64,000 nucleotides of DNA from positions 2,851,510 to 2,915,509 of the forward strand of contig NC_014150.1 of assembly GCF_000092845.1 (NCBI RefSeq). Direction: 5' to 3'. Below are positions 23,753 through 44,226 of the stretch, piece after piece (position 1 is the first letter of the stretch; every line of letters begins with the position of its first letter). The notes under the pieces are model-generated. The model saw nothing but the letters and a program-made list of their open reading frames with translations, searched no databases and was not told the DNA's origin. Position numbers and translations under genes: made by a program. Source of the stretch: Brachyspira murdochii DSM 12563 (GTDB taxonomy: Bacteria > Spirochaetota > Brachyspiria > Brachyspirales > Brachyspiraceae).

Positions 23753-26700
23753 CTAACCCTCCACAACCTTAACCTCTTCATCACTCAACCCATAGAGCGA
23801 ATAAACAATCTCGTCAATTTGCTTTTCTAAAGCGGTAGTATCTTTATCTTGCTTTTTTAGTATTATAATCTGATCAACGAGTTTTGTTATATTATTTTTA
23901 GTCTTAGAGTCGGCTTCTGGGATAGGAATATTTGCAAAAAATATTGCAGATAATTCTCTAGTACCACCCTGTAACTCTGGACAATTCCACCTTATCCAAA
24001 AATGAGATACTTTAGAATTTAAAATACCCGTTAAATATTTTAAATTATTTTTATTGTTTTTGTTATCAATTATAAAAAAACACTTTTGATTAACATAAAA
24101 ATTATTTTCATCATATATGAACGGTAAATATTTTGTCATATTAGGATATATTATTTTATTATTTTCAAAATCTTTATAATAAGATATAGTATCTTGAGTT
24201 TCAAACCACTTGTTATTAGTTTTTTTACGGCAGCCTTTTTCTCCGCTTTGTTCTAATCTTTTACCAAAACTTTCTAAATATTTTTTTATAGCTTTATATT
24301 TATCTATATTTAGTTTTAAAGCAGGAAAAGTGCATATAAGGTATAAATTATTAAAATCGTATGAATACCTTTTAATATCACGCCCCCTAAGTAAAGGTTT
24401 TATTAATTCTGCACTCTTTTTATCCTCTTTAATAAGCCTATCTTTAGTTTCCTCATCTATGATAAACGCCTCATTATAACCAGTCTTGATACCATAATTA
24501 ATTTTTATATCCCAGTCCTTCAAAGCCTTGTGCCTGCTAATCTTGTTAAAAATGCTCCTCTCCAAGCCGCTCATTATCACCCATTCTCTGCCAGCCTCAC
24601 TGACCACAGCGTCAAACTCGGCACTTGCAATCTCTTTCAAACTGCCAGAATAGGTAACCCCTTCAAAACTACGCTCGCCCCGAGTATGTTTTTCTTTAGT
24701 TTTAGAATAAAAAATTATGTTAACATCCACCGTAGCACTTTCAAACCTGCCAGCCCCCAAATCTATGATACGAAACACATCGGCATTCTTATAAAAATAT
24801 TCCCTAGTACTAGCTCCATAACCTGCACGCATCCACTTATTAGAAGTTATCAAACTAGCCACCCCGTCATCGCTGAGAAGTCCCAAGCATTTTTCATAAA
24901 ACAGCTGATATATGTCCCCAGTCGATTTAAAACTCTCATAACCAGCATTCTGATACATCTCTTTTAATCCCTTAGCCATACCCTGAAGCTGTATATAAGG
25001 CGGATTTCCTATCACAATGTCAAAATCCCTATCAATACCAAACTGCACCAAAGGCGAAAAGAACTCTGCCGATTTATTGTCAAACGGACACCAAGACAAA
25101 ATTTTCGCTTTTATACTCTCATCTATAAAAGCAGAATTTTTTACAAACTCCCGAAACTCTTCAAATTTTATTTTTACCCTCTCTTTTTCTTCCAAAGACG
25201 AAGCCACATAAAACATTTCAGATATATTTTTCATCATTGTTTTTATGCCCTCTAATACGCTGTACTCAAAAGTTCCTTTCTTTATATTAAAATCCACCCC
25301 TATTAACGCATTGGTGCAAAGAAATTGAAACTCCAAATTCGGCAAAGTTCTAATACCCAAATTATGCTCTTTTTTCTCTTTTTTCTCATCAACTACCAAA
25401 GATAAAAACGCCCTCAATTTACTAACTTCAATCGCTATAGGCTGTATATCTACCCCATGTATCATACTCTGAAGTATATCAAGTTTATACGCATAGCTGA
25501 ATTTCTTTGCATCATACAATTTTTTAAACTCAGCCTTAGCCCCAGAAGGCAGCTTATCAATAACATAATTTTTATAATATTCATGATTAGGGTCTAGCTT
25601 ATCAATCACATTAAAAACCCTCTGTAGTATCCCCAAAGGAAAGGCACCGCTTCCGCAGGCAGGGTCTAATATTATCATGTCATGTATATTCTTCAAAATA
25701 CCCTTTCGCTCTTCGTCTGTATATTTTACGCTCTCATCAACATCAAAAATCCTGTCAATCTTGTTTTTCTCCATATCGGGCATTTTCTTATACAGATAAA
25801 GTTTTATAGCCTCCATTACCATATAGTCCACAATCTCACGAGGCGTATAAAATGATCCCGTCTCCTTCCTAGCACTCTCTTTTGTCTCTGGGTTTATCTC
25901 CGCAAGCAGATTTTCAAAAATACGTCCCAGCATCTCTGGGTCTATGCTTATCTCCACATCAAAAGGGGCACTCTCATCAACCGTGAAATTGTACATCTCA
26001 AAAAATTCAAACAACCCCTTTATTATCTCATCATCTATACTCTTTACAGCCTCATCGTCCTCCTTCTTTGAAAATAATCCCCCGTTCAAAAATGGTATAG
26101 CCTTCTCATAATTATATATCACTCTCTCTTTTGAAAATTTACGCTTTTCCATATCCATATTAAGAACATTAAAAAACAAATCCTCAAGCACATCGCTGTA
26201 ATAATTTTTCTTGTATTTAAGATTTTCAAAAACCCCGCTGTTTAATATCTCATTCGGTATCAATTCCTTCTCCCGTAAAAACCAGCAGAAAAGCACACGA
26301 CCCAAAAACCTTAATGCAAACTCTTTAGCCTTGTTTTCGTCCTTATCAAAATATTTTATGATATCATTATGTATCTTCTCAAAATATTCCTTAACCCCTT
26401 TATAAAACTCCTTATTAACACCCTCCACACTGAAAGCATTTTCTATACTCTCAACACTTCCAAAAATATCGCTTGTAATCCTGCTTGCTGGCGTATGTAC
26501 CTTTATTCCCTCCCCAAGCAAAAAAGTATATCTTTTAGGATTACTGTAATCATCTTTCATTATGATAAGACCATTTTCGCCTTTTATACCCATCTTGTCA
26601 TGCTTTACATACGATACCCTATAATTATTTTTATTATCTTCATAAAGTATAAAAAATATACCCTTACCATAACTGCCAGACATTAATATCCTGCTGCAAA

Positions 26701-26983
26701 TCCTAGAAATTTTTACTCTGCTAGCAAGCCTAGTATTTTTTATATATACTTCAAACACCCCGATAACTTCATTTTCATTTATATTCAAATCCCCAATCCA
26801 AATAATTTTATTTAAAAAATCTTTATTCTTTTCTATTATTTCTTCTTCGCCAGCCACAGAGCCATATTCTTCTTTAAAATTCTCTCCAAAATGCTCAGCC
26901 CATTTTTGTTTATTGTAAGGCTCATCAAATTTAAAATTATTATTTTGAGTATTAATATTTTTCACACTATTATTTTTTTTCAT
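23753..26983 (-). CDS. Eco57I-like (type IIG-style) restriction-modification enzyme
   Basis: A 1076-residue protein. The methyltransferase core has LDPACGSGAFPLGI near 437 (motif I) and IGNPPYIQLQG near 657 (motif IV, NPPY, adenine N6). DPEMLGRIFENLL and KETGSFYTPREIVDYMV (about 350-385) are the usual lead-in of Eco57I-like enzymes. The C-terminal third is TaqI-like and ends in a target-recognition-type region. The N-terminal part (VIGVFEVYIKNTRLASR near 80-96) could carry a PD-(D/E)XK-type nuclease, as in type IIG enzymes, but no clear D-ExK is seen. AAGGAA precedes the start. Two further genes follow on the same strand. Confidence 0.8.
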   Translation of the reverse strand: MKKNNSVKNINTQNNNFKFDEPYNKQKWAEHFGENFKEEYGSVAGEEEIIEKNKDFLNKIIWIGDLNINENEVIGVFEVYIKNTRLASRVKISRICSRILMSGSYGKGIFFILYEDNKNNYRVSYVKHDKMGIKGENGLIIMKDDYSNPKRYTFLLGEGIKVHTPASRITSDIFGSVESIENAFSVEGVNKEFYKGVKEYFEKIHNDIIKYFDKDENKAKEFALRFLGRVLFCWFLREKELIPNEILNSGVFENLKYKKNYYSDVLEDLFFNVLNMDMEKRKFSKERVIYNYEKAIPFLNGGLFSKKEDDEAVKSIDDEIIKGLFEFFEMYNFTVDESAPFDVEISIDPEMLGRIFENLLAEINPETKESARKETGSFYTPREIVDYMVMEAIKLYLYKKMPDMEKNKIDRIFDVDESVKYTDEERKGILKNIHDMIILDPACGSGAFPLGILQRVFNVIDKLDPNHEYYKNYVIDKLPSGAKAEFKKLYDAKKFSYAYKLDILQSMIHGVDIQPIAIEVSKLRAFLSLVVDEKKEKKEHNLGIRTLPNLEFQFLCTNALIGVDFNIKKGTFEYSVLEGIKTMMKNISEMFYVASSLEEKERVKIKFEEFREFVKNSAFIDESIKAKILSWCPFDNKSAEFFSPLVQFGIDRDFDIVIGNPPYIQLQGMAKGLKEMYQNAGYESFKSTGDIYQLFYEKCLGLLSDDGVASLITSNKWMRAGYGASTREYFYKNADVFRIIDLGAGRFESATVDVNIIFYSKTKEKHTRGERSFEGVTYSGSLKEIASAEFDAVVSEAGREWVIMSGLERSIFNKISRHKALKDWDIKINYGIKTGYNEAFIIDEETKDRLIKEDKKSAELIKPLLRGRDIKRYSYDFNNLYLICTFPALKLNIDKYKAIKKYLESFGKRLEQSGEKGCRKKTNNKWFETQDTISYYKDFENNKIIYPNMTKYLPFIYDENNFYVNQKCFFIIDNKNNKNNLKYLTGILNSKVSHFWIRWNCPELQGGTRELSAIFFANIPIPEADSKTKNNITKLVDQIIILKKQDKDTTALEKQIDEIVYSLYGLSDEEVKVVEG

Positions 26984-27065: not shown

Positions 27066-27299
27066 AGACTTGTTTCAAAAGTACTTGACAAGATTATGTA
27101 TAAAATTTTATAATTTATCAATTATAAAATTAATGTTTTAAATGTTGTATAATTTATTATTTAAGTATATAAATATGCAGTCTTTTTGCTTCTTTGGGTC
27201 ACCAAAAGAAGTGGGGTTTGGGGCAAAGCCCCAACTATAATTAAAAAATATTAAATAAAAATTTATAAATATTAATAAATTTAGTTTTGAAACAAGTCT
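27066..27299. repeat. Intergenic element R1, copy B, with terminal inverted repeats
   Basis: A 234-base element bounded by AGACTTGTTTCAAAA and TTTTGAAACAAGTCT, a perfect 15-base inverted pair. The core runs ATATGCAGTCTTTTTGCTTC, then a TTTGGGTCACCAAAAGAAG palindrome and a GGGGTTTGGGGC / GCCCC hairpin. The left half aligns with copy A at 13798 over most of its length. It lies between the Eco57I-like gene and the Sao operon promoter. No gene is seen in it. Confidence 0.75.
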
Positions 27300-27355
27300 A
27301 TAGTTTTAATGTATTAAAAATGTTTTATTTACAAACAAAAAGTAATAATATTTAA

Positions 27356-27383
27356 TTGACTTTACTATAATTTGTGTTAATAT
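27356..27383 (+). promoter_or_regulatory. Probable promoter of the Sao operon
   Basis: TTGACT at 27356-27361, a 16-base spacer and TAATAT at 27378-27383. The first gene starts at 27614, leaving a leader of about 220 bases. Confidence 0.45.
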
Positions 27384-27421
27384 ACACATATCACTTACAG
27401 GGTATAATTAATATGTGTATA
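27381..27421. promoter_or_regulatory. Inverted repeat over the Sao promoter (candidate operator)
   Basis: TATACACATAT at 27381-27391 and ATATGTGTATA at 27411-27421 are perfect 11-base inverted arms separated by 19 bases. The left arm overlaps the -10 and likely start point. There is no T run, so it is not a terminator. It could be a repressor site or the base of a leader-RNA hairpin. The rest of the leader (27422-27600) shows only a short GC-rich patch near 27460-27500. Confidence 0.4.
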
Positions 27422-27613
27422 ATTAATAATTTAAAGCTAACTTTATTTAATAATCAGTACGCTTTCCCCGAGACACACTCTCTATAATATACCGTGCGTA
27501 TATTCTAAAAATCATATCTAACAATAATAATCAAATTACATTATTTTAAAGAAATTTTTATATTATTTTTATTTTAGAAATTAAGTTTTATTAATATTTT
27601 ATAAGGATTTTTT

Positions 27614-27877
27614 ATGTCTAAAGTATTAGTTGAATTTATTAATACCTGCCCAACCTGCGACGGCTACTCATCATTTTTAAACGAATTGCAAAAACAGTAT
27701 AATGACCAAATAGAAGTAAAACTCTATTATGCAGGTAAAGATTTTGATTATTTAGAAAAATACGGAATGATAGACAGAGGTACATTAATTATAAACGGAA
27801 AAGACAGATACGATGTCTTAAGCAAAAAATTAATAGAAAAAGAAATTAAAAAGGCACTGGAAGTACAAAACGCTTAA
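27614..27877 (+). CDS. saoT: Thioredoxin-like protein SaoT (Cys form)
   Basis: An 87-residue thioredoxin-fold protein with the redox pair TCPTCDGY (Cys12 and Cys15). Small thioredoxin-like proteins of this type, some with selenocysteine at this site, head Sao operons in anaerobes; that knowledge and the naming are from memory of NCBIfam families. Here both positions are cysteine. It probably supplies or receives thiols for the organometal lyase at the operon's end. AAGGA lies before the ATG, and the permease follows 10 bases later. Confidence 0.75.
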   Translation: MSKVLVEFINTCPTCDGYSSFLNELQKQYNDQIEVKLYYAGKDFDYLEKYGMIDRGTLIINGKDRYDVLSKKLIEKEIKKALEVQNA

Positions 27878-27887
27878 TAAAACTATT

Positions 27888-28994
27888 ATGATAATGAATT
27901 TTTTGTATGTATTTTGGGACTTTCTCCTAATAAGTTCTGAATGGATTGTCATAAGTTTAATATTATCTGGTATAATACATGCTTTTGTACGTCCTCAAGT
28001 ACTGCAAAAATCAATAGGCAATAAAAAAATATCTTCTTTAATAAAGACTACAATATCAGGAGCAATTCTTCCTATATGCAGCTGCGGAGTACTTCCTTTG
28101 GCATTAAGTTTATACAGGACAGGTGCCTATTTAGGACCTACACTTTCATTTTTGGTATCAACCCCAATAATTAACCCAGCTGCAATAATAGTTGCTTTTG
28201 CTATGCTAGGTAAAGAAATTACTATTATATATATATTATGCGGAATATTTCTTCCTTTAATAATAGGAATATTAGGAAACACTTTCGGCGGCAAAGAATT
28301 AATAGCCCCTGAAGTTTTGAAATTGCAAAGTATGAATATTAAAATCCCAGAAACAAATTATGTAGATAAAACGCCTTGGTACAAAAAATTATACAATGGC
28401 ATTTTATGGGGATTTAATAATCTTGGAATAGAAATAAGCAGATTTATTTTAATAGGTACTTTATTTGGGGCATTGTTATTAACTGTAGTTCCTCAGTCAT
28501 TTGTTATGCAGTATTTAAGCAGCCCAAAATTAGTATCAATATTAGGTATAACTTTAGTAGGCTGTATGATGTATGTATGTGCTTTAGGTCATATACCATT
28601 AATAGCCGCTTTAATATCAGCAGGTGCTTCACCCGGTATAGCAATAACATTTTTGATTACAGGGGTAGCAACCAATATTTCCGAATTAATCAGCATATAT
28701 AAGCTCATAGGTAAGAGAACTTTAATCATATATTTAGTTTCTATGCTTTTTTTTGGTATCTTGATAGGTTACATTACAAATATTTTATTAACGGATAATT
28801 TTACGCCCATCTTTGATTTATCAAATTCTACTAAGCAGATAGAAATAGCCAATAATATAAATATCACTTTTCCAGATTGGTTTAAGAATATATGTGCTAT
28901 TGCAGTTTTATTTATGGGCTTATATTCATGGTTTATGATAATAGTAAAGAAAATAAAGCTGATTGTAAGCAGGGAAAAAGAAGTTCAATGCTGA
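27888..28994 (+). CDS. saoE: DUF318/ArsP-like permease SaoE
   Basis: A 368-residue membrane protein of the COG0701 permease family (relatives include ArsP, which exports organoarsenicals). The motif PICSCGVLPLALSLYRTGAY (63-82, with Cys64 and Cys66) and TPIINPAAI are diagnostic, and the second half repeats the pattern (MYVCALGHIPLIAAL). About 8-10 helices are visible. In Sao operons it is taken to be the exporter of a metal or metalloid product. It starts 10 bases after saoT, and its end overlaps saoC by 7 bases. Confidence 0.82.
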   Translation: MIMNFLYVFWDFLLISSEWIVISLILSGIIHAFVRPQVLQKSIGNKKISSLIKTTISGAILPICSCGVLPLALSLYRTGAYLGPTLSFLVSTPIINPAAIIVAFAMLGKEITIIYILCGIFLPLIIGILGNTFGGKELIAPEVLKLQSMNIKIPETNYVDKTPWYKKLYNGILWGFNNLGIEISRFILIGTLFGALLLTVVPQSFVMQYLSSPKLVSILGITLVGCMMYVCALGHIPLIAALISAGASPGIAITFLITGVATNISELISIYKLIGKRTLIIYLVSMLFFGILIGYITNILLTDNFTPIFDLSNSTKQIEIANNINITFPDWFKNICAIAVLFMGLYSWFMIIVKKIKLIVSREKEVQC

Positions 28995-29440
28995 GATTAT
29001 TTTTTGTTTTATGTGTTTTTATATTTGTTTCATGCGGTAATAATACACAGGATATAAAGAGTGCAGAAGGCATAAATAATGATGAGCTTTACAAATCCTA
29101 TATGAAAGAATACTCAGAAAAAGAACTTCTTACATTTTTGGAGGGCGATTTCAGCGGTGATGATAAAGATGATTTAATAATAATTTACAGAGAGTCAAAG
29201 TATTCAAATAAATTGATTGGTATATATAAAGACTATAACAGCGGAAAAATATTAATGACATCTCCTATACCTGCCCCTATAGAGAGTTATACTATGAAGT
29301 TTTATAATATAGACGAAAAAGTGCCAAATGAAATTTTGGTATCTGGTAAAAAGGGAGCACATATAGGTTTTGCTGTTTATAGGCTTGAAAACGGAGAGTT
29401 TATAAGTTTATTTGAAAACGGAATGGAAGATTGCTGTTAA
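28988..29440 (+). CDS. saoC: Cys-Cys-COOH lipoprotein SaoC (Cys form)
   Basis: A 150-residue lipoprotein. The start at 28988 is chosen because it gives a proper signal peptide with lipobox FVSC (Cys16) and a 7-base overlap with saoE; longer readings run back inside saoE. A DFSGDDKDDLIIIYR segment resembles calcium-binding FG-GAP/VCBS-type repeats. The protein ends in two cysteines right before TAA (MEDCC), the feature for which the SaoC family is named; relatives have selenocysteine there. The terminal pair may bind or transfer a metal outside the cell membrane. Confidence 0.78.
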   Translation: MLRLFFVLCVFIFVSCGNNTQDIKSAEGINNDELYKSYMKEYSEKELLTFLEGDFSGDDKDDLIIIYRESKYSNKLIGIYKDYNSGKILMTSPIPAPIESYTMKFYNIDEKVPNEILVSGKKGAHIGFAVYRLENGEFISLFENGMEDCC

Positions 29441-29475
29441 AAAAACATATATATAATTTTTTAAGGAGAACAATA

Positions 29476-30642
29476 ATGAAACAAACTATGATTATTTTGT
29501 CTATGTTTATTATGATGCTTTCATGCGGAAGAGGGAATAATTCTAAAGAAGCAGTTCAAATACCTGCAGATGTGCAGGCTATAATTGATGACTATAATTT
29601 GGAAGAATTAAGCGACGATGATAAAAAATATAAAATTAATTTGGGTTATTATAACTGCGACCATATGACAGCAGCTTGTGTAGGTGAGGATACTGGTATA
29701 TTTAAAGCATTAGGTTTGAATGTTACAGTAACAGGTAATGGTAATGTTCCAGAGGCTATGAGTGCAGGTCAGATGGATATGGCATATGCAGGTTTTACAA
29801 CTACTTTAAATGCTGTAAAAAATAAAGTACCTCTTTTTATAGCGGCAGAAAATCATACAGGCGGAGCTGAATATTTTGTTGTTTCTAAAGATATTAATAA
29901 ACCAGAAGACCTTTTAAATAAAAGAATATCTATGGGAGCAAATGCTGAAACAGTAAATTTAAACTGGGCTGAATGGACAGAACAATTAAATATACCAAGA
30001 GATACAACTTATTATGAAAACTTTTCTATGAGTGATTCTGATGCTTATTTTGCCTTTAAATTAGGTCAATTAGATGGTTACGGAGCATGCGATCCTTGGG
30101 GTTCTATGGCAGAATATGAGAATACTGGTAAAATATTAAAAAGACAAAATACCGATAGAGAAATAGACGGTCATGGAACTTGCTGTAAAGTTTGTATGAA
30201 TTATAACTTTGCTAAAGCTCATCCAAAATTGGCTGAACGTATACTTCTTGCTCATGCTATGTCTATAGAATATATGTATCTACACCCTTATAAAGCAGCT
30301 CAGATATTTGCTGAAAATTATAATGTTCCTTTGGAAGTTGGTCTTATGACTTTATGGAAAAAACTTAATGAGGAAGGAAGAACTATCACTTGGAAATTAA
30401 ATAGAGATTATGTTCATAACCAAATGAAAACCATGAAAAGATTAGGTGTAAGAGATGATATTAACTCCCTTGATATAGATGATTATATAGATTTATCATA
30501 CTTTGATAATTGCGGAGCCAAAGATTTTGATGTATTTCTTAAAGAAGAAGTTGACCCTATATTCCCTCTTGGTATGAGTTATGAAGAATGGAGAGCTAAA
30601 GCCGTAGAAGTAGATAACATCAAAGAAGAACCTGAAGTGTGA
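29476..30642 (+). CDS. NMT1/THI5-like substrate-binding lipoprotein of the Sao transporter
   Basis: A 388-residue lipoprotein. AAGGAG at 29463-29468 fixes the start at 29476; the lipobox is MMLSC (Cys17). The fold is the nitrate/taurine type: YYNCDHMTAACVGEDTGIFK near 57-76, then MDMAYAGFTTTLNAV. It is cysteine-rich in places where simple binding proteins are not (NCDHMTAAC, GACDPWG, HGTCCKVC), which suggests a metal or organometal ligand. It is one of two substrate-binding-like genes here; either could be the SaoB of published families, so no symbol is given. Confidence 0.75.
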   Translation: MKQTMIILSMFIMMLSCGRGNNSKEAVQIPADVQAIIDDYNLEELSDDDKKYKINLGYYNCDHMTAACVGEDTGIFKALGLNVTVTGNGNVPEAMSAGQMDMAYAGFTTTLNAVKNKVPLFIAAENHTGGAEYFVVSKDINKPEDLLNKRISMGANAETVNLNWAEWTEQLNIPRDTTYYENFSMSDSDAYFAFKLGQLDGYGACDPWGSMAEYENTGKILKRQNTDREIDGHGTCCKVCMNYNFAKAHPKLAERILLAHAMSIEYMYLHPYKAAQIFAENYNVPLEVGLMTLWKKLNEEGRTITWKLNRDYVHNQMKTMKRLGVRDDINSLDIDDYIDLSYFDNCGAKDFDVFLKEEVDPIFPLGMSYEEWRAKAVEVDNIKEEPEV

Positions 30643-30683
30643 AAATATAATAATAAATTATATATAGTAAATAAAGGAATGAG

Positions 30684-31511
30684 ATGGGGCATATAATAAA
30701 AAGAAATAAATATATTATTATATTTAGTATTGTTTTTATAATATGTTTCATCTTATTTCAAAACTATAAAATTTTATTAAACGATATAAATAAAGATAAA
30801 ATCACGGTAGCATGCGGTAATGATGCTTCTGGAATGCTCTTTGATTATATAATAAATGATAAAGATTCTAATATAGAGTTTTCAAATATTGATTATGTTC
30901 AGTTTTTGGATTGCTGCGGTTCTCAGGCCGAATTTGCTTTTATATCTGGAAGGATAGACATGGCTGTTTTATGTCCGGATGCGGCATTTCAATTAATTTA
31001 TACTGATACAAATTATTATATAGTAGGCTCTATAGTTAAAGGCTCTAATATATTGGTTTATTATAATGAAGATTATGATAATAATGTTGAACCTAAGAAT
31101 ATAGGATATATGAATAAAAGGCTTCTTCAGGAGGCTTTACTTAAATGTAGGTATTCTAATTCTAATTATTATCCTATGCTTTCAACAGCATTGCCTTATG
31201 CTTTAGAGAAAAAAACTGTTGATGCTATTTTTATTGATATTATATTGGCTTTAAAAATCAAGAATGCCAGATTTAAAAAAATTGATACTGAAGAATCCGA
31301 TTATTATTTGGTTGCTTCAAAAAAACTAAAAGACACTGTTATTCTTAATGATTTTATTAAAGTTTACAATGAAGCAGTTGATGATATAGAAAATGATACA
31401 ATATTATCTAATATACTCGTTAGTTATTTAGATATTTCAAACTCAGAAGGAGAAATGAATATATGGAAAACAATGGGCGTCAAGTTCAGCAAAATAAAAG
31501 CAGAGTTATAA
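30684..31511 (+). CDS. Second, membrane-anchored substrate-binding-like protein of the Sao operon
   Basis: A 275-residue protein with an N-terminal helix (about 10-27) that lacks a lipobox, so probably an anchored periplasmic protein. The body looks like one NMT1-type domain: KITVACGNDASGM, then VQFLDCCGSQAEFAFISGRI, a line where relatives carry redox cysteines, and DMAVLCPDAA. The Cys-Cys-Gly stretch near 78-80 recalls Sec/Cys sites of Sao binding proteins, making it a good SaoB candidate. The permease start lies 49 bases inside its end, in another frame. Confidence 0.65.
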   Translation: MGHIIKRNKYIIIFSIVFIICFILFQNYKILLNDINKDKITVACGNDASGMLFDYIINDKDSNIEFSNIDYVQFLDCCGSQAEFAFISGRIDMAVLCPDAAFQLIYTDTNYYIVGSIVKGSNILVYYNEDYDNNVEPKNIGYMNKRLLQEALLKCRYSNSNYYPMLSTALPYALEKKTVDAIFIDIILALKIKNARFKKIDTEESDYYLVASKKLKDTVILNDFIKVYNEAVDDIENDTILSNILVSYLDISNSEGEMNIWKTMGVKFSKIKAEL

Positions 31512-32290
31512 ATTTGGGAAATGCTGGAAATAGTATTTTTATGAAATTTTACAGTGTTTCTGTGCTTATAGTTATAATGGTAGTTTGGTATTTCCTTGCA
31601 AAAAAGATAGACAATAATTTACTTCTTCCAGATTTTTTATTAACCTGCAAAGAATTTTTTCTTTCTTGGGTAGACCCTTATACTGTTCAAAATTTGCTTA
31701 TAACATTAGAGCGTGTATTTAGAGGATTTATTATAGCTTGTATAATAGGATTGCCTTTAGGACTTATTATGGGATATTCAAAACCTATACTTTTGGCTGT
31801 TTCTCCGATTATAAACTCTATAAGACAAGTTCCTATAATGGCTTGGATACCATTAGCAATAGTATGGTTTGGTCTTGGCGACGGACCTACTATATTTTTA
31901 ATAACTATGAGTGCTATATTTCCTCTTATAATAAATACTATAGACGGAGTTAGAGGAATTGACCCAAATTATATTAATGCGGCTAGAAGTATGGGGGCTA
32001 GAAATATAGATATTATGTTTGATATAATTTTACCCGGTGCTTTGCCTTCATTTTTAACGGGATGCCGACTTGCTTTAGGTTTAGGCTGGATGAGTGTTAT
32101 TTGTGCAGAGTTTATTGCTACAAGTAAAGGTTTCGGCTTTATATTGGTTGAAGCTCAGCAGAGACTTGAAACACCTAAACTTTATGCTCTTATGATAGTA
32201 TCTGCTATTATAGGATTTAGTATGGATAGGGTGCTTGTTGTATTAGAAAAAATATTAACTTCTTGGAGATTTAAAAATGGCAATTCTTGA
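31463..32290 (+). CDS. saoP: ABC transporter permease SaoP
   Basis: A 275-residue permease of the SsuC/TauC type with about six helices. The EAA-type loop INAARSMGARNIDIMFDIIL then PGALPSFLTG couples to the ATPase. It forms the membrane channel for the two binding proteins encoded before it. The first ATG overlaps the upstream gene by 49 bases; an ATG at 31541 is a possible but shorter start. The ATPase gene begins 14 bases before its stop. Confidence 0.85.
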   Translation: MENNGRQVQQNKSRVINLGNAGNSIFMKFYSVSVLIVIMVVWYFLAKKIDNNLLLPDFLLTCKEFFLSWVDPYTVQNLLITLERVFRGFIIACIIGLPLGLIMGYSKPILLAVSPIINSIRQVPIMAWIPLAIVWFGLGDGPTIFLITMSAIFPLIINTIDGVRGIDPNYINAARSMGARNIDIMFDIILPGALPSFLTGCRLALGLGWMSVICAEFIATSKGFGFILVEAQQRLETPKLYALMIVSAIIGFSMDRVLVVLEKILTSWRFKNGNS

Positions 32291-33056
32291 AGTAAATAAC
32301 GTATGCAAATCTTTTAAAACTTCAAAAAAATCTCCTGAAGTTGAGGTATTAAAAGACATTAGTTTTACAGCGGAAAAGGGGGAGTTTGTAACTTTGCTTG
32401 GACCTTCAGGCTGCGGTAAAACTACACTTTTAACTATAATAGGAGGTTTTCAGAGTGCAACATCTGGAGAGGTACTGCTTGAAGGAGAGAGAATAGAAAA
32501 ACCTTCTTCAGACAGAGGGTATGTTTTTCAGAATTATGCATTATTTCCTTGGATGAATGTTGAAAAAAATATACTTTATTCTCTTAAATTTTCAAAGATG
32601 AGTAAAGAAGAAAAGAAAAAACGTTTGGAAGAGCTTCTTGAAATGTCGCATCTTAAAGGGCATGAAAAGAAGTATCCTATTTCTTTATCGGGTGGGATGC
32701 AGCAGAGGGTAGCTGTTGTAAGGGCATTAGCACCTTATCCTAAAATACTGCTTTTAGATGAACCGCTTGGAGCTATAGATTTGCAGATGAGAGAGCATAT
32801 GCAAAATGAGCTTTTACAGTTAGTTAAAGAGAGTAATAGCACTATACTTATGGTTACGCATGATGTTTCTGAGGCTGTTTATATGAGTGATAGGGTTATT
32901 GTTATGAGCTTAAATAAGGGTGAGATAGTGGCTGACATGAGAATAGATATTAAGCACCCTAGAGAAAGAGACAGTGAGGAGTATATAGAATGTGTTAGAG
33001 AACTTACTAATAATGTTAAAAAGGCTTTTATCAATAAAGTGCCTGTTTCGGTATAA
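32277..33056 (+). CDS. saoA: ABC transporter ATP-binding protein SaoA
   Basis: A 259-residue nitrate/sulfonate-type ATPase. The Walker A is LGPSGCGKTTLLT (about 41-53), the signature LSGGMQQRVAVVRAL, the Walker B ILLLDEPLGAID and the switch MVTHDVSEAVYMS. The Q-loop is FQNYALFPWMNV. It powers uptake through the permease whose gene overlaps it by 14 bases. Confidence 0.92.
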   Translation: MAILEVNNVCKSFKTSKKSPEVEVLKDISFTAEKGEFVTLLGPSGCGKTTLLTIIGGFQSATSGEVLLEGERIEKPSSDRGYVFQNYALFPWMNVEKNILYSLKFSKMSKEEKKKRLEELLEMSHLKGHEKKYPISLSGGMQQRVAVVRALAPYPKILLLDEPLGAIDLQMREHMQNELLQLVKESNSTILMVTHDVSEAVYMSDRVIVMSLNKGEIVADMRIDIKHPRERDSEEYIECVRELTNNVKKAFINKVPVSV

Positions 33057-33119
33057 GTAATTTCTTCTAAATACATAAATACATAAAAATAATATAAATA
33101 TTTTTGGAGGGGTAAATAA

Positions 33120-33452
33120 ATGAAAGTAGCTTATATTTTCAGTAGCCAAAATTCGCATATGATTTTGGACAAAATGATAATTCCGCAATTATTAAATGAT
33201 AAACATGGTGCGGAAGTTGTTGGTATGATGTTTTTTGCAGACAATACTTTTCTTCTTACAAAAGGAAGCAGTGTTGGAGATAGACTTGCAAAAGTATTAG
33301 AAAGCAAAAAAATTCTTCTTATGGCATGCAATATATGTGCTATAGAGAGAGGCATTGATGACAAACTTATAGATGGTGCTTGTATAGGTTGTTTCCCAGA
33401 CTTATATAAAGCTTTGGAAGGAAGCGGGGTTGAACAGGTTATAACTTTATAA
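33120..33452 (+). CDS. saoD: DsrE-like protein SaoD
   Basis: A 110-residue DsrE/F-fold protein (KVAYIFSSQNSHMILDKMII at the start). Four cysteines occur in its second half: MACNICAIERG (the position of the sulfur-relay Cys of DsrE relatives) and GACIGCFPDL. In Sao operons a DsrE-related protein accompanies the lyase, suggesting thiol-based carriage of the metal ion or alkyl donor. GGAGG at 33108-33112 is its ribosome site, and the lyase gene starts 9 bases after it. Confidence 0.78.
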   Translation: MKVAYIFSSQNSHMILDKMIIPQLLNDKHGAEVVGMMFFADNTFLLTKGSSVGDRLAKVLESKKILLMACNICAIERGIDDKLIDGACIGCFPDLYKALEGSGVEQVITL

Positions 33453-33461
33453 GGATTGTTT

Positions 33462-34082
33462 ATGTTTGATACTGATTTTATGGAGAGATATGGTATATCT
33501 GATAAATATCATAATTTACCTTCGGATATACAGAATGCTAGATTAAGATTGATGAATAGAGTTATAGATACAGGCTGCACTATTAACAAAGCTGAAGCTA
33601 TAGAAATATGTGGAGATGAAAGTTTGTATAAAACTCTGCTTGAAAAAGAAATTATCACTTTAAGCGGAGATGATGTTGCTTTTCTTTATCCTGTATCTGC
33701 TATGGAAACTAATCATAGGGTAAAACTTGCTGACGGAAGAGAATTCTGTTCAATGTGTGCTATAGATGCACTTGGCTCTTACAGTTTATTTCATCAGGAT
33801 ACTGAAATTAATTCTATATGCAGTCAGACTGGCGAAAAAATATATGTAAGAATTAAAGACAGATGTATTGTTGAACATTCGCCTGATGATATACATGTAA
33901 TACATGTTGATTTAAATAAAAATAAGAATTGGGCTAGCACCTGCTGAAATATCATGAATTTCTTTGGGTCAAAGAATGATATGAATGAATGGCTTAAAAA
34001 TCAAGATATAGATAATAATACTATATATCTTTTAGATTTAGAAACTGCTTTTAAAGTGGCAACTGCAATATTCAGACTATAA
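33462..34082 (+). CDS. saoL: MerB-like organometal lyase SaoL, predicted selenoprotein (TGA at 33945 read as Sec)
   Basis: A 206-residue protein when the in-frame TGA at 33945-33947 is read as selenocysteine, residue 162; a plain reading stops after 161 residues. AAGGA at 33451-33455 supports the ATG at 33462 over the TTG at 33456. Residues 96-105 (FCSMCAIDAL) hold Cys99 and Asp102, equal to MerB Cys96 and Asp99. The Sec is 60 residues after the Asp, exactly the Asp99-Cys159 spacing of MerB. After the TGA the frame reads NIMNFFGSKNDMNEWL, the MerB-type C-terminus, to TAA at 34080. MerB enzymes cleave carbon-mercury bonds; the SaoL substrate is unknown. It is the last gene of the operon. Confidence 0.88.
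33945..33982 (+). promoter_or_regulatory. Bacterial SECIS hairpin with its UGA codon
   Basis: Starting one base after the TGA, ATATCA (33949-33954) pairs with TGATAT (33977-33982), a five-base bulge follows, then TTCTTTG (33960-33966) pairs with CAAAGAA (33970-33976) around a GGT loop (33967-33969). A short apical loop with G, about 20 bases after the UGA, is the layout that SelB recognises in bacterial SECIS elements. The hairpin lies within the coding sequence, as bacterial SECIS elements must. Confidence 0.82.
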
Positions 34083-34111: not shown

Positions 34112-34150
34112 TAGGTGATAGATATATTTTTTATATCTATCACCTTTTTA
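34112..34150 (+). terminator. Rho-independent terminator of the Sao operon
   Basis: AGGTGATAGATATA and TATATCTATCACCT form a 14-base stem followed by a T run, 30 bases after the TAA of the extended saoL. Its position beyond the read-through stop fits the selenoprotein reading. Confidence 0.85.
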
Positions 34151-34153
34151 TTT

Positions 34154-37100
34154 TTAATTGCTATATTTACTAAACTCTTCTTTTACTATCAAATAGGAAT
34201 CTTCGTATATGCTTTGAAGATTGTTTGAAGAATAATTGAATTTCTCATTTACCTCATCAGAAGATATAATATTCTGAAGTATTCCTACAGAACATCCGCT
34301 TTTTGATTTTAATGCTTTTTCTATTTCTTTTATAGTTTTATCAGACAAATATTTATTTTCTGTAATACTTATTAATTTTTTTACATAATCTCTCTCTTCA
34401 TCATTGTCAAGATATTGATAAAAATTATTAAGTGCACTGTGGCTGCTTGTAGACTTTTTAATATTTTTTCTTCTTTTTAATTCATCTTCAAAGTTTTTTA
34501 TATTTTCGCTTGGAGGAATATATTTTTCATTTTTATCAGCTTTTAGAGTTTTAAATATATTTTCTATATTAAAATCTATTTTTGAGTTTTTTAATAGAGA
34601 ACCGAATACTCCGTTTTTTGATTGTATTATCTCTAATAAACCGCTGAAATTTGACTCTCTTCTTATTACTATATTATTTTCTATTGATTTTATTCTTTCA
34701 AGAAGTTTATCATCATTTTTTATTTTATTATAAATATCTCTATATTCATTATCCCAGCTTACATCATCATCAGTTAGAATTTCATTTTCTCTTTTTAATG
34801 AGAATAGCGAATTAATTTCATCATCTTTTTTTAATATTTTTGTATCATTTCCGAATATAGCATTTATCAAGTTTAATTTAAAATTGGATATCTGCCAATT
34901 CTTTATATCTTTCTGAGCTTCAAGCCTAGGTATAAAGTTATGTATATATATTTTATCAAATAGTTTTTTGCCTATTCTGTTTATACGTCCCACTCTCTGT
35001 ATTACTCTTGTAGGATTGTAAGGAATATCATAATTTATTATTATACCAGCCCTATGAAGATTGATACCTTCTGACAGTGTATCAGTAGCTATTAGTAAAA
35101 AATAATCATCTTCTTGTTTATCAGTATTCAAAGAAGCATCAAAATTGGCTGCTATTATATCTCTGTTTTTTGACTGTGATGTTGATTTTATAGGTTTAAA
35201 TAGTTCTCTTAATTCATCATCTTTATACACAGATTCATATAAATAATCTGCTGTATCTTTAAACTCTGTAAATATTATAATTTTTCTTTTATCATTTTCT
35301 TTTTTGAATTTTTTTAATTCTTCTATTAGTTTAATAAATTTTTTGTCTTTATCTGATGATATATTATCCCAATCTTTTTTTATCTGTTTTAATATTTTCA
35401 AATCATTTTCAAAATCTTCAAAAAATTTATCTTCCAAAACTTCTTTAACATTTTCTATTATTTTTACATCTTTAATTTTTTTATTTGTCTTATTAAAATC
35501 TAATACTTCATCATATTCAATATCATTCTCATCATCTGCATTTTCATTATTATAAGAAAAGAAATCTTCTATATATAGAGTATCACCTTTTTTATAAATA
35601 GGGTATAAATCTTTATTAATCCAAGTTTTTATATTTTCGTATTTATCTATCATATTATCTATACTTTTTTTAAAAGCATAAAGAGAACTTTCAAATCTTC
35701 TTACAAGCAAATGTTTCATAAATTTAGTAAGGTTTCTTGAGGAAGTGGAGGCAAAATCTGCATTAATATTTTCTCCGTATACGTATTCTATTATTTTATC
35801 AGCATTTTTCTTTTCTTCTATCGTAGTATATTTAAGATAAGTTAAAGGCTCATAACGTACAGCTTTGAACTTATTATTATTTATTTCTGTACTATTGTTA
35901 TTATCATCAAATAGAGTTTTATCATTTCCTTTATTATTATATTCATCGTCATTTGGAGTAATTTTTTCAAATGTATCAGAGTATAATTTTGATATATCGC
36001 CTAAATTATAATCATGAAGTTTTGGGTCTTCTACATTATTAAACTCTGTTTTTTGCTCTTCTAAATCTTTTCTGTATTCCAAATCCTCTTTTAAATCTTT
36101 TCTTGTTCTTCTTATTATTATAGGATTAATCAAACCTAAAATTTGTTTTGATATATCTTTTATTTTTTCTTTAGTTTCTTTTTCATTATCATCTTTTTTG
36201 TATTTGCTTTTTATAATTCGCTCTTCTTTTAGAATAGATGATTTGATTTCTGCTATACTTTTATCTGTAGTGAGCATTCTGTCAAATATATCTATTAAAG
36301 AAAATATATCAGAAGTTGTATTATGCATAGGAGTTGCGGTAAGAAGCATAACTTTATTTGCTGAGCATATATTTTTTATAATATTGTAAGATTCTGTTTT
36401 GCTATTTACAAATCTATGAGCTTCATCTATTATAATAAGTCTTGTTTTTTTATGATTCTTCACATATTCGTATAATTCATCTAATTTACCAACACTTTTT
36501 ATTACAGCATTTAATTTGAACTCAGTATTATAATTTTCCCAAGAATATATTATTTTTGGAGGAGATACTATTATAATTTCTTCAGCAGCTTTCATTTCAA
36601 TCAAATTTTTAGCTATTGCCGAAGCTATTATACTTTTTCCAAGCCCTACAACATCAGATATTAAAACCCCGCCATATGTCATAATGCTTTTTATTCCGCT
36701 TTTTATAGCGTCTATCTGATATTTATAATTTGAATAATTAAAATCTTTAGGCGTGAATAATAATTTTTCATTGGTAAAAAAATTAAAATATTCGTATATA
36801 ACTTTTAAATATATTTCGTAAGGAGTAGCGTGTTTAGTAGTTTCTTCAGCTTCATTATTATTTTGTTTTATTTCTTCTTTATCTTTTATTCCCACTCTAT
36901 CAAAGAATTCTTTTTCATTTTCTTTGTCTAATATACTTGATGTGTTTTTCCATTCATCTTGAAAAAAGTTATAAAAATCTTCAAATCCGTCTTCTGTGTA
37001 TGCATTAATTTCTTTTCTTTGATGAAGACCTTCTCTTGAAAAATTGCTTGAACCTATTATTGCACAGCCGTGCATTTTCTTTATTGTACTTTTATCGTTA

Positions 37101-37507
37101 TATCTTAATACATAGAGTTTTGCATGAGTTTTATCGTTTGCACTTCTTATTTCAAGGGAGGAGTTTTGGCATTTTTCTTTAAATAGTTCCAATACTGTTT
37201 TATTGTTTGGATTTTTATTTAATTCACTAATTGTATACTCTATAAAGTCATTAAATTCTTCTTTATTTGTTTTTGTATTATTTTGATTATAATTAATATA
37301 TAAACACTGAATTTTAGGGTCAATATTCATACCCATGATAATTTTGACATTTGCTTTAAAAAATGTTTCTCTAGCTGTTTTGTCGTTTGATATATCATAA
37401 AATGCACTATAACTGCAGTAAGCAGAGAGTATTCCTATTTCTTTAATATTTTCTTCAGTTTTAAAAATTTCAAAAACTTTAGTATTAACATTATCCAATA
37501 TTTTCAT
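34154..37507 (-). CDS. PLD-domain SNF2-type helicase (defence-associated family)
   Basis: A 1117-residue protein. The first 200 residues form a phospholipase-D-like nuclease domain with DKTHAKLYVL and IIGSSNFSREGL (HxK and the SSN motif). A SNF2-type helicase follows: DVVGLGKSIIAS (Walker A), IIIDEAHRFVN (DEAH), LLTATPMHNTTSD, then, after a long charged insert, IIFTEFKDTADYLYE and RVIQRVGRINRIGK (motif VI). Related PLD-helicase proteins occur in restriction and anti-phage islands. It stands alone here, convergent with the Sao operon. No partner methylase adjoins it, so it may act by itself or be left over from a larger locus. Confidence 0.82.
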   Translation of the reverse strand: MKILDNVNTKVFEIFKTEENIKEIGILSAYCSYSAFYDISNDKTARETFFKANVKIIMGMNIDPKIQCLYINYNQNNTKTNKEEFNDFIEYTISELNKNPNNKTVLELFKEKCQNSSLEIRSANDKTHAKLYVLRYNDKSTIKKMHGCAIIGSSNFSREGLHQRKEINAYTEDGFEDFYNFFQDEWKNTSSILDKENEKEFFDRVGIKDKEEIKQNNNEAEETTKHATPYEIYLKVIYEYFNFFTNEKLLFTPKDFNYSNYKYQIDAIKSGIKSIMTYGGVLISDVVGLGKSIIASAIAKNLIEMKAAEEIIIVSPPKIIYSWENYNTEFKLNAVIKSVGKLDELYEYVKNHKKTRLIIIDEAHRFVNSKTESYNIIKNICSANKVMLLTATPMHNTTSDIFSLIDIFDRMLTTDKSIAEIKSSILKEERIIKSKYKKDDNEKETKEKIKDISKQILGLINPIIIRRTRKDLKEDLEYRKDLEEQKTEFNNVEDPKLHDYNLGDISKLYSDTFEKITPNDDEYNNKGNDKTLFDDNNNSTEINNNKFKAVRYEPLTYLKYTTIEEKKNADKIIEYVYGENINADFASTSSRNLTKFMKHLLVRRFESSLYAFKKSIDNMIDKYENIKTWINKDLYPIYKKGDTLYIEDFFSYNNENADDENDIEYDEVLDFNKTNKKIKDVKIIENVKEVLEDKFFEDFENDLKILKQIKKDWDNISSDKDKKFIKLIEELKKFKKENDKRKIIIFTEFKDTADYLYESVYKDDELRELFKPIKSTSQSKNRDIIAANFDASLNTDKQEDDYFLLIATDTLSEGINLHRAGIIINYDIPYNPTRVIQRVGRINRIGKKLFDKIYIHNFIPRLEAQKDIKNWQISNFKLNLINAIFGNDTKILKKDDEINSLFSLKRENEILTDDDVSWDNEYRDIYNKIKNDDKLLERIKSIENNIVIRRESNFSGLLEIIQSKNGVFGSLLKNSKIDFNIENIFKTLKADKNEKYIPPSENIKNFEDELKRRKNIKKSTSSHSALNNFYQYLDNDEERDYVKKLISITENKYLSDKTIKEIEKALKSKSGCSVGILQNIISSDEVNEKFNYSSNNLQSIYEDSYLIVKEEFSKYSN

Positions 37508-43881: not shown

Positions 43882-44226
43882 AAAAAGTAAGCGGAGCTAT
43901 AAGCCGTATTCTGTCATTTAAGGTAAACATTTATCTTGATATTATATCACTATAATATTCTAGCGAGCCACCTGAAACTTAGGAAAAGGGCAATCCGTTT
44001 CTGTTTGCTCTTGCCTCTCATGGGGTTTACACTGCCATTTATGTCGCCACAAATGCGGTATGCTCTTACCATGCCTTTTCACCCTTACCAAATTGGCGGT
44101 ATATTTTCTGCTGCACTTTCCATAGACTTTCGTCTTCAAGCCGTTAGCTTGCATGATGCCCTTTAGAGGTACGGACTTTCCTCAGTATTAGTTACTTAAA
44201 TACCGCGTTTACCCACTCCGCATAGC
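43882..44226 (-). ncRNA. rnpB: RNase P RNA
   Basis: Read on the minus strand it contains GAGGAAAGTCC (44173-44183), the hallmark of conserved region I, and ends near GACAGAATACGGCTTATAG, holding the ACAGAA of region V. The ends pair as GCGGAG and CTCCGC (P1). A T run follows. It is the catalytic RNA that matures tRNA 5' ends. A 64-residue minus-strand ORF inside is not coding. Ends are approximate. Confidence 0.93.

What the first reader, a model, noticed from the sequence alone, without database searches (positions are those of the whole stretch)
27614..34082. Nine-gene Sao-type organometal operon in a spirochaete, mixed Cys and Sec
Thioredoxin-like, DUF318 permease, Cys-Cys-COOH lipoprotein, two substrate-binding proteins, ABC permease and ATPase, DsrE-like and MerB-like lyase genes follow with gaps of 63 bases or less, several overlapping. 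This matches the Sao families defined in clostridia and other anaerobes (recalled, not searched). In this copy the SaoT, SaoC and binding-protein sites are all Cys, and only the lyase has Sec. The likely logic is uptake, bond cleavage with Cys-Asp-Sec, thiol transfer by SaoD and SaoT, and export by SaoE. The substrate is unknown.
Basis: partly seen in the sequence, partly recalled or inferred. Interest (0 to 1): 0.82.

Follow-up and report, generated by a model that had tools for sequence, protein, structure and literature searches.

The report
Spirochaete Sao operon with selenocysteine lyase
A gut spirochaete carries a complete nine-gene copy of a recently described but untested system thought to take in, cut and expel metal-carbon compounds; only its cutting enzyme uses selenium here, and relatives across six phyla place a strong electron-donating enzyme beside these genes, which makes the system's purpose easier to test.

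Summary
All nine proteins pass the curated NCBIfam cut-offs for SaoT, E, C, X, B, P, A, D and L in a compact 6.5-kb operon. Only saoL has an in-frame TGA (33945-33947). Reading it as selenocysteine is supported: MerB homology continues past it, pN/pS is the same on both sides, all 11 Brachyspira copies keep it, a SECIS hairpin follows, and SelB and tRNA-Sec are present. The Sec aligns with MerB's catalytic Cys.

The family is known (Haft & Gwadz 2023), so this is a new member, not a new kind. Additions: (i) across 84 Sao loci TGA falls only on conserved Cys columns; (ii) a double-cubane-cluster reductase (NF040772) lies beside or inside 34 of 73 non-Brachyspira Sao loci in six phyla, and is present in all 24 further genomes tested and all 11 Sao+ Brachyspira (2 of 15 Sao-); (iii) a sao-specific leader occurs only in Sao+ Brachyspira; (iv) the operon probably came from Bacillota.

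Substrate and function remain inferred: organometal detoxification is favoured, a role in selenium metabolism is the main rival.

The parts
27356..27383 (+). Promoter-like site upstream of the leader (TTGACT-16-TAATAT)
   Evidence: Consensus scan only, about as many such sites as in shuffles; the TTGACT box is kept in most Brachyspira copies
27413..27487 (+). Possible 24-aa leader ORF, MCIINNLKLTLFNNQYAFPETHSL
   Evidence: Motif NQ[DY][AST]FP[ED] in 11/11 Brachyspira copies, pN/pS 0.48, ATG lost in B. innocens
27486..27504 (+). Hairpin or palindrome AATATACCGTGCGTATATT at the end of the leader ORF
   Evidence: Conserved with a compensatory change; upstream of sao in 11/11 Sao+ species, absent from the 15 Sao- species
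27614..27877 (+). saoT, thioredoxin-like; the site that can be Sec is Cys12 here
   Evidence: NF040730, 134 bits against cut-off 65; column survey
27888..28994 (+). saoE, ArsP_1/SO_0444-like efflux permease, CSCG motif (C64, C66) and C231
   Evidence: NF040736, 491 bits against 325; PF03773
28988..29440 (+). saoC, lipoprotein-like protein ending Cys-Cys-COOH
   Evidence: NF040734, 149.6 bits against 80; CC end invariant in 34 aligned sequences
29476..30642 (+). saoX, ABC substrate-binding protein, conserved C61, C205, C236, C237
   Evidence: NF040735, 498 bits against 300
30684..31511 (+). saoB, second substrate-binding protein, conserved C77, C78, C97
   Evidence: NF040727, 302 bits against 140
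31463..32290 (+). saoP, ABC permease, conserved C214 (Sec in 46 of 81 relatives)
   Evidence: NF040733, 386 bits against 295
32277..33056 (+). saoA, ABC ATPase
   Evidence: NF040729, 373.6 bits against 360
33120..33452 (+). saoD, DsrE-related protein, conserved C70, C73, C91
   Evidence: NF040732, 181.3 bits against 169
33462..34082 (+). saoL, MerB-like lyase, 206 aa with Sec162; C99, D102, C120, C161
   Evidence: NF040728, 181.3 bits against 140; PF03243 past the TGA; MerB fold
33945..33947 (+). In-frame TGA read as selenocysteine
   Evidence: Invariant in 11 Brachyspira, TGA in 42 and Cys in 5 of 47 SaoL
33960..33976 (+). SECIS-like hairpin, 6-bp stem with loop GGGTC
   Evidence: Fold -8.0 kcal/mol; 97.7% of cells paired with one compensatory pair; meets the bSECIS limits in PMC13188914
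34113..34145 (+). Terminator-like hairpin that ends the operon (14-bp stem, T tail)
   Evidence: Consensus scan

Best explanation
It is a complete Sao (selenocysteine-assisted organometallic) operon. Most likely working, inferred from families and conserved residues: SaoX and SaoB capture a thiol-seeking organometal(loid) with Cys clusters outside the membrane; SaoP-SaoA import it past a pore Cys (C214); SaoL, a MerB-fold enzyme with Cys99-Asp102-Sec162, binds the metal between thiolate and selenolate while Asp donates the proton that releases the carbon group; the inorganic metal is handed through SaoD/SaoT thiols to SaoE, an ArsP/SO_0444-like exporter, with the Cys-Cys tail of SaoC as an outside trap. 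A double-cubane-cluster reductase, encoded elsewhere in this genome, probably supplies strongly reducing electrons for a step of the same physiology. Shown here: gene identities, Sec codon and SECIS, position of the Sec at the MerB catalytic site, co-occurrence with the reductase. Inferred: substrate, direction of flow and every catalytic step.
For: Nine of nine curated models above cut-off. SaoL has the MerB fold and triad positions. SaoE falls in the ArsP_1 permease family. Sec codons across 84 loci fall only on conserved Cys columns in T, E, B, P and L, as expected if these sites bind one soft substrate along a path. The order T-E-C-X-B-P-A is kept in most loci of several phyla. The reductase NF040772 lies within 2.5 kb of 34 of 73 loci in six phyla and is present in 24 of 24 further Sao+ genomes and 11 of 11 Sao+ Brachyspira.
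Against: No substrate or activity is shown. SaoL is missing at the locus in 37 of 84 cases, some cut by contig ends, so C-metal cleavage is not shown to be the core reaction. An importer is an odd choice for pure detoxification. Sao tracks selenium use even where no Sao protein shows Sec. The reductase may follow selenium metabolism in general rather than Sao.
Confidence: 0.55

Rival explanations
1. Sao serves selenium metabolism: it acquires, recycles or protects selenium (for example from soft metals, or from organoselenium forms) in organisms rich in selenoproteins, and the double-cubane reductase is part of that pathway.
For: Of 20 genomes with no Sec seen in their Sao genes, 18 have SelB, against 42% of Clostridia as quoted in PMC10418091. 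In Brachyspira Sao tracks glycine reductase, 9/11 against 2/15. The reductase here sits with an EF2568-type desulfurase and an activase fused to a Se/S-carrier domain, a neighbourhood tied to selenium in PMC5322559. PMC10418091 shows DCCP and Sao genes in selenium-linked clusters.
Against: The lyase and exporter families handle metals and metalloids. All 26 Brachyspira have SelB but only 11 have Sao. Several of the 20 contigs are partial and many lineages are related. No selenium ligand is known for any Sao protein.
Confidence: 0.25
2. It is a plain mercury-resistance (mer-type) unit: SaoL frees Hg(II) from organomercury, and the rest moves Hg(II).
For: The MerB fold and triad positions.
Against: No MerA, MerR, MerT or MerP family among the nine. 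SaoL keeps an extra Cys161 next to the Sec in 44 of 47. Many loci lack SaoL.
Confidence: 0.1
3. The TGA is an ordinary stop and SaoL is a shortened protein ending in Cys.
For: The curated SaoL model ends at the residue before the TGA.
Against: MerB homology continues past it; pN/pS is 0.15 after it against 0.17 before; TGA kept in 11/11 Brachyspira and 42/47 loci, with Cys in the other 5; SECIS; SelB and tRNA-Sec present.
Confidence: 0.02

Closest known systems
Sao system of Clostridioides difficile and other anaerobes (Haft & Gwadz 2023; NF040727-NF040736)
   Same: All nine families above cut-off and nearly the same gene order.
   Different: C. difficile loci have order D-T-E-C-X-B-P-A-L with Sec in T, B, P and L; here D lies before L and only L has Sec. 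Saved by a Brachyspira-only leader.
MerB organomercurial lyase (PF03243; PDB 5c17, 3f0o)
   Same: Fold (Z about 20) and Cys-Asp-Cys/Sec triad positions.
   Different: About 16-22% identity to MerB structures; Sec at the second catalytic Cys; extra Cys before it; far below the MerB equivalog cut-off (65 against 193 bits).
Taurine/sulfonate ABC importers (TauABC, SsuABC)
   Same: SaoX, SaoP and SaoA are distant relatives.
   Different: Conserved Cys in X, B and P that other Sao copies can turn into Sec.
ArsP / SO_0444 efflux permeases (PF03773, NF033936)
   Same: SaoE has the ArsP_1 domain.
   Different: Below the SO_0444 cut-off (204 against 300 bits) and above that of SaoE.
Double-cubane-cluster reductase and its activase (NF040772, TIGR00241)
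   Same: Found beside or inside many Sao loci and at G000:C1:742073-743185 in this genome.
   Different: Not one of the nine Sao families; unlinked to sao in Brachyspira; also common without Sao.

Membership tests
Sao system | Each protein matches its own Sao equivalog model above the curated cut-off | tested here: met
   Nine of nine
Sao system | The genes form one compact cluster | tested here: met
   Gaps of 63 nt or less, three overlaps; terminator after saoL; co-transcription itself not tested
Sao system | At least one Sao protein is a selenoprotein in a Sec-decoding genome | tested here: met
   SaoL TGA with SECIS; SelB and tRNA-Sec; SelA-like ORF beside them
Sao system | Organometal substrate | not testable with these tools
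   No assay; the name rests on homology
MerB-like lyase | MerB fold | tested here: met
   pLDDT 93.6; MerB structures are the only clear matches
MerB-like lyase | Cys-Asp-Cys triad positions, Sec allowed for the second Cys | tested here: met
   C99, D102, U162 aligned with MerB2 and an alkylmercury-lyase-family protein
MerB-like lyase | Score above the MerB equivalog cut-off (true MerB) | tested here: not met
   65 bits against 193 (NF009710) and 57 against 200 (NF033555); it is a SaoL, not a MerB
[quoted passage not shown]
   Stem 6, loop 5 (GGGTC), spacing 18 nt, -8.0 kcal/mol; limits from PMC13188914
mer mercury-resistance operon | merA reductase and merR regulator next to the lyase | tested here: not met
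   None of the nine genes matches them; the two flanking genes are a type IIG-like methylase and a helicase

The most novel reading that the evidence does not exclude
Sao is not a stand-alone organometal detoxifier but a ten-part, reductase-dependent pathway: the double-cubane-cluster reductase is an obligate partner (physically linked in six phyla, co-occurring but unlinked in Brachyspira), and the whole serves selenium metabolism or its protection from soft metals, so it persists even where no Sao protein carries Sec.
Probability: 0.25. Interest if true: 0.75.

Novelty: new member of a known kind. Interest (0 to 1): 0.5.

Why it matters
None of the papers I could read here tests what any Sao system does. 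This spirochaete copy lies far from the clostridial ones, has Sec only at the catalytic lyase position, and belongs to a genus in which 11 of 26 species have the system and 15 lack it, so it offers a natural comparison. The constant company of a double-cubane reductase adds a tenth candidate component and a concrete redox hypothesis. The curated SaoL model stops just before the Sec, so annotation that relies on it may truncate the enzyme at its active site.

Tried and rejected
Ordinary stop at the TGA: rejected. Chance cluster: rejected. Rfam RNA in the leader: none, even at E up to 1. The leader as a whole does not fold better than shuffles (z 0.0). Leader motif in non-Brachyspira loci: none found. 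Plasmid relatives: SaoX gives only weak sulfonate-type hits, SaoL only MerB-type proteins in the rows shown. SaoL absence compensated by a linked reductase: not supported (11/16 against 14/28, Fisher p 0.34, opposite-strand cases L089 and L096 counted as unlinked). Phylogeny-aware test of Sao against the reductase inside Brachyspira: right direction, too few contrasts. SaoC fold: no clear PDB match, which does not show the fold is new. The source papers Haft & Gwadz 2023 and Haft & Tolstoy 2025 are not held, so I could not check whether they list Brachyspira or the reductase.

Full report
WHAT IS THERE. The window is G000:C1:2851510-2915509 of a one-contig 3,241,804-bp genome. Its nearest Sao copies are those of Brachyspira sp. 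G79 and B. innocens, so it is a Brachyspira; size and relatives point to B. murdochii DSM 12563 (recall, not tested). Nine co-directional genes run from 27614 to 34082 with gaps of 63 nt or less and three overlaps. A strong terminator-like hairpin follows saoL at 34113-34145; the other such sites are short and lie inside genes.

THE SELENOCYSTEINE. Only saoL has an in-frame TGA, at 33945-33947. Pfam MerB aligns over residues 81-206 of the read-through, past the TGA. In the 11 Sao+ Brachyspira species the TGA is invariant. pN/pS over ten of them is 0.17 before and 0.15 after it; B. alvinipulli has a frameshift downstream and was left out. In 47 SaoL from several phyla this column is TGA in 42 and Cys in 5. 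A hairpin 12 nt downstream pairs in 97.7% of cells over 29 sequences, against 56-79% when slid, with one compensatory C-G/U-A pair. The copy here folds at -8.0 kcal/mol and meets the bSECIS limits given in PMC13188914. SelB and tRNA-Sec are present beside a SelA-like ORF (named from its sequence, not scanned). The curated SaoL model ends at the residue before the Sec, which suggests that it was built on truncated proteins (inference).

WHERE THE SEC SITS. The phmmer alignment to MerB2 (PDB 5c17) puts the Sec on a Cys of MerB2, while the preceding Cys161 meets Thr. Alignment with an alkylmercury-lyase-family protein of Pseudomonas sp. K-62 keeps C99, D102, C120 and both positions 161 and 162. 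From established knowledge MerB uses C96, D99 and C159, so the triad here is Cys99-Asp102-Sec162 (ATG numbering; add 2 for the TTG start used). AlphaFold gives pLDDT 93.6, and all clear matches are MerB structures. Cys161 is conserved in 44 of 47: an extra soft ligand beside the Sec that might suit a three-coordinate metal(loid) such as As(III) or Bi(III) (inference).

SURVEY OF THE FAMILY. A scan of one genome for each of 84,980 species with SaoX gave 80 loci. With the Brachyspira copies this makes 84 non-redundant loci in Bacillota, Synergistota, Thermodesulfobacteriota, Fusobacteriota, Chloroflexota and others. TGA occurs only at conserved positions: T12 or T14 (24 of 73; T14 is the less conserved one), E64 (2 of 79), B78 (20 of 80), P214 (46 of 81) and L (42 of 47); none was seen in C, X, A or D. 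The lyase-only pattern of Brachyspira also occurs in L057, L084 and L119; C. difficile has Sec in T, B, P and L. SaoL is missing at the locus in 37 of 84, some of them cut by contig ends. On a tree of E, X, P and A, Brachyspira is one clade (support 100) inside a Bacillota-dominated group with Oribacterium, rumen clostridia and Fretibacterium. Of 138 spirochaete genera sampled only this one has SaoX. Transfer from Bacillota is the simplest reading.

A TENTH COMPONENT? Clustering of flanking genes turned up 2-hydroxyacyl-CoA-dehydratase-like genes and activases beside or inside Sao loci. All eleven that I scanned are NF040772, the double-cubane-cluster reductase (three, eight). A relative of it lies on the same strand within 2.5 kb in 34 of 73 non-Brachyspira loci, spread over six phyla. 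A molybdopterin oxidoreductase does so in 11. In 24 Sao+ genomes chosen mostly because their locus showed no linked copy, 24 have it. In a draw from the class of C. difficile 39 of 343 genomes have it over the cut-off, including all 3 with SaoX. In Brachyspira it is unlinked but present in 11/11 Sao+ and 2/15 Sao- species (Fisher p 2e-5). The tree allows only about 3 independent contrasts, all in the same direction or neutral, so within the genus this is suggestive, not proven.

THE SELENIUM ALTERNATIVE. The reductase here is followed by an EF2568-type desulfurase and an activase fused to a Se/S-carrier domain, a neighbourhood linked to selenium in PMC5322559. PMC10418091 groups DCCP and Sao genes with selenium genes in methyltransferase clusters. 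Of 20 genomes with no Sec seen in their Sao genes (some contigs partial), 18 have SelB, against 42% of Clostridia as quoted in PMC10418091. In Brachyspira Sao also tracks glycine reductase, 9/11 against 2/15, although all 26 species have SelB. Sao could therefore protect or feed selenium metabolism. The exporter and lyase families still speak for metal handling, so I keep this as the main rival.

LEADER. The block shared by the Sao+ Brachyspira starts near 27350, not at saoT. It holds a possible 24-aa ORF (27413-27487, motif NQ[DY][AST]FP[ED] in 11/11, start codon lost in B. innocens, pN/pS 0.48, so only moderate support) and a hairpin (27486-27504) with a compensatory change. Searched over 26 genomes with one mismatch allowed, the hairpin occurs upstream of sao in the 11 Sao+ species and in none of the 15 others; one further weak hit lies elsewhere in G007. 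It may be an operator or an attenuation element; I cannot tell which.

WHAT IS AND IS NOT NEW. Sao itself is known (Haft & Gwadz 2023, as cited in PMC13188914); the source paper was not readable here. This is a new member with a restricted Sec pattern. The reductase association and the leader were not found in the papers I could read, but PMC10418091 already shows DCCP and Sao together in a figure legend, and the novelty of both additions is unconfirmed.

Noticed in passing
window 27066-27299: A 234-bp insert with 18-nt, 94% complementary ends (MITE-like) just upstream of the sao leader; it is absent from the two closest relatives, G79 and B. innocens.
   Followed up: partly
window 23753-26983 (-) and 34154-37507 (-): The operon lies between a type IIG-like methylase and a DrmD-like SNF2/PLD helicase. 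Only G79 and B. innocens share these flanks; in the other Brachyspira the sao block sits in other neighbourhoods.
   Followed up: partly
window 27413-27504: Brachyspira-only leader: possible 24-aa ORF plus hairpin, present only in Sao+ species.
   Followed up: partly
L036, L037, L041 (three species of the B. pilosicoli group): saoD is missing from the operon although saoL is kept.
   Followed up: no
L034 (B. alvinipulli), 11627-12674: saoD is short and saoL has a frameshift after the TGA: decay or sequencing error.
   Followed up: no
L125:9035-12586 (G000:C1, about 742-746 kb): Double-cubane reductase, EF2568-type desulfurase and an activase fused to a Se/S-carrier domain in one cluster.
   Followed up: partly
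L076, L084, L090, L091, L107 and others: A molybdopterin oxidoreductase of about 710-770 aa lies directly beside Sao genes in 11 non-Brachyspira loci.
   Followed up: partly
L066 and L069 (rumen clostridia): SaoP has TGA at the Sec column, yet no SelB was found in these incomplete genomes.
   Followed up: no
L099, L101 and L106, SaoL: Three deltaproteobacterial-type SaoL have Cys at the Sec position and an inserted stretch before it, Cys-rich in two.
   Followed up: no
window 43884-44224 (-): RNase P class A RNA, 277.9 bits.
   Followed up: no
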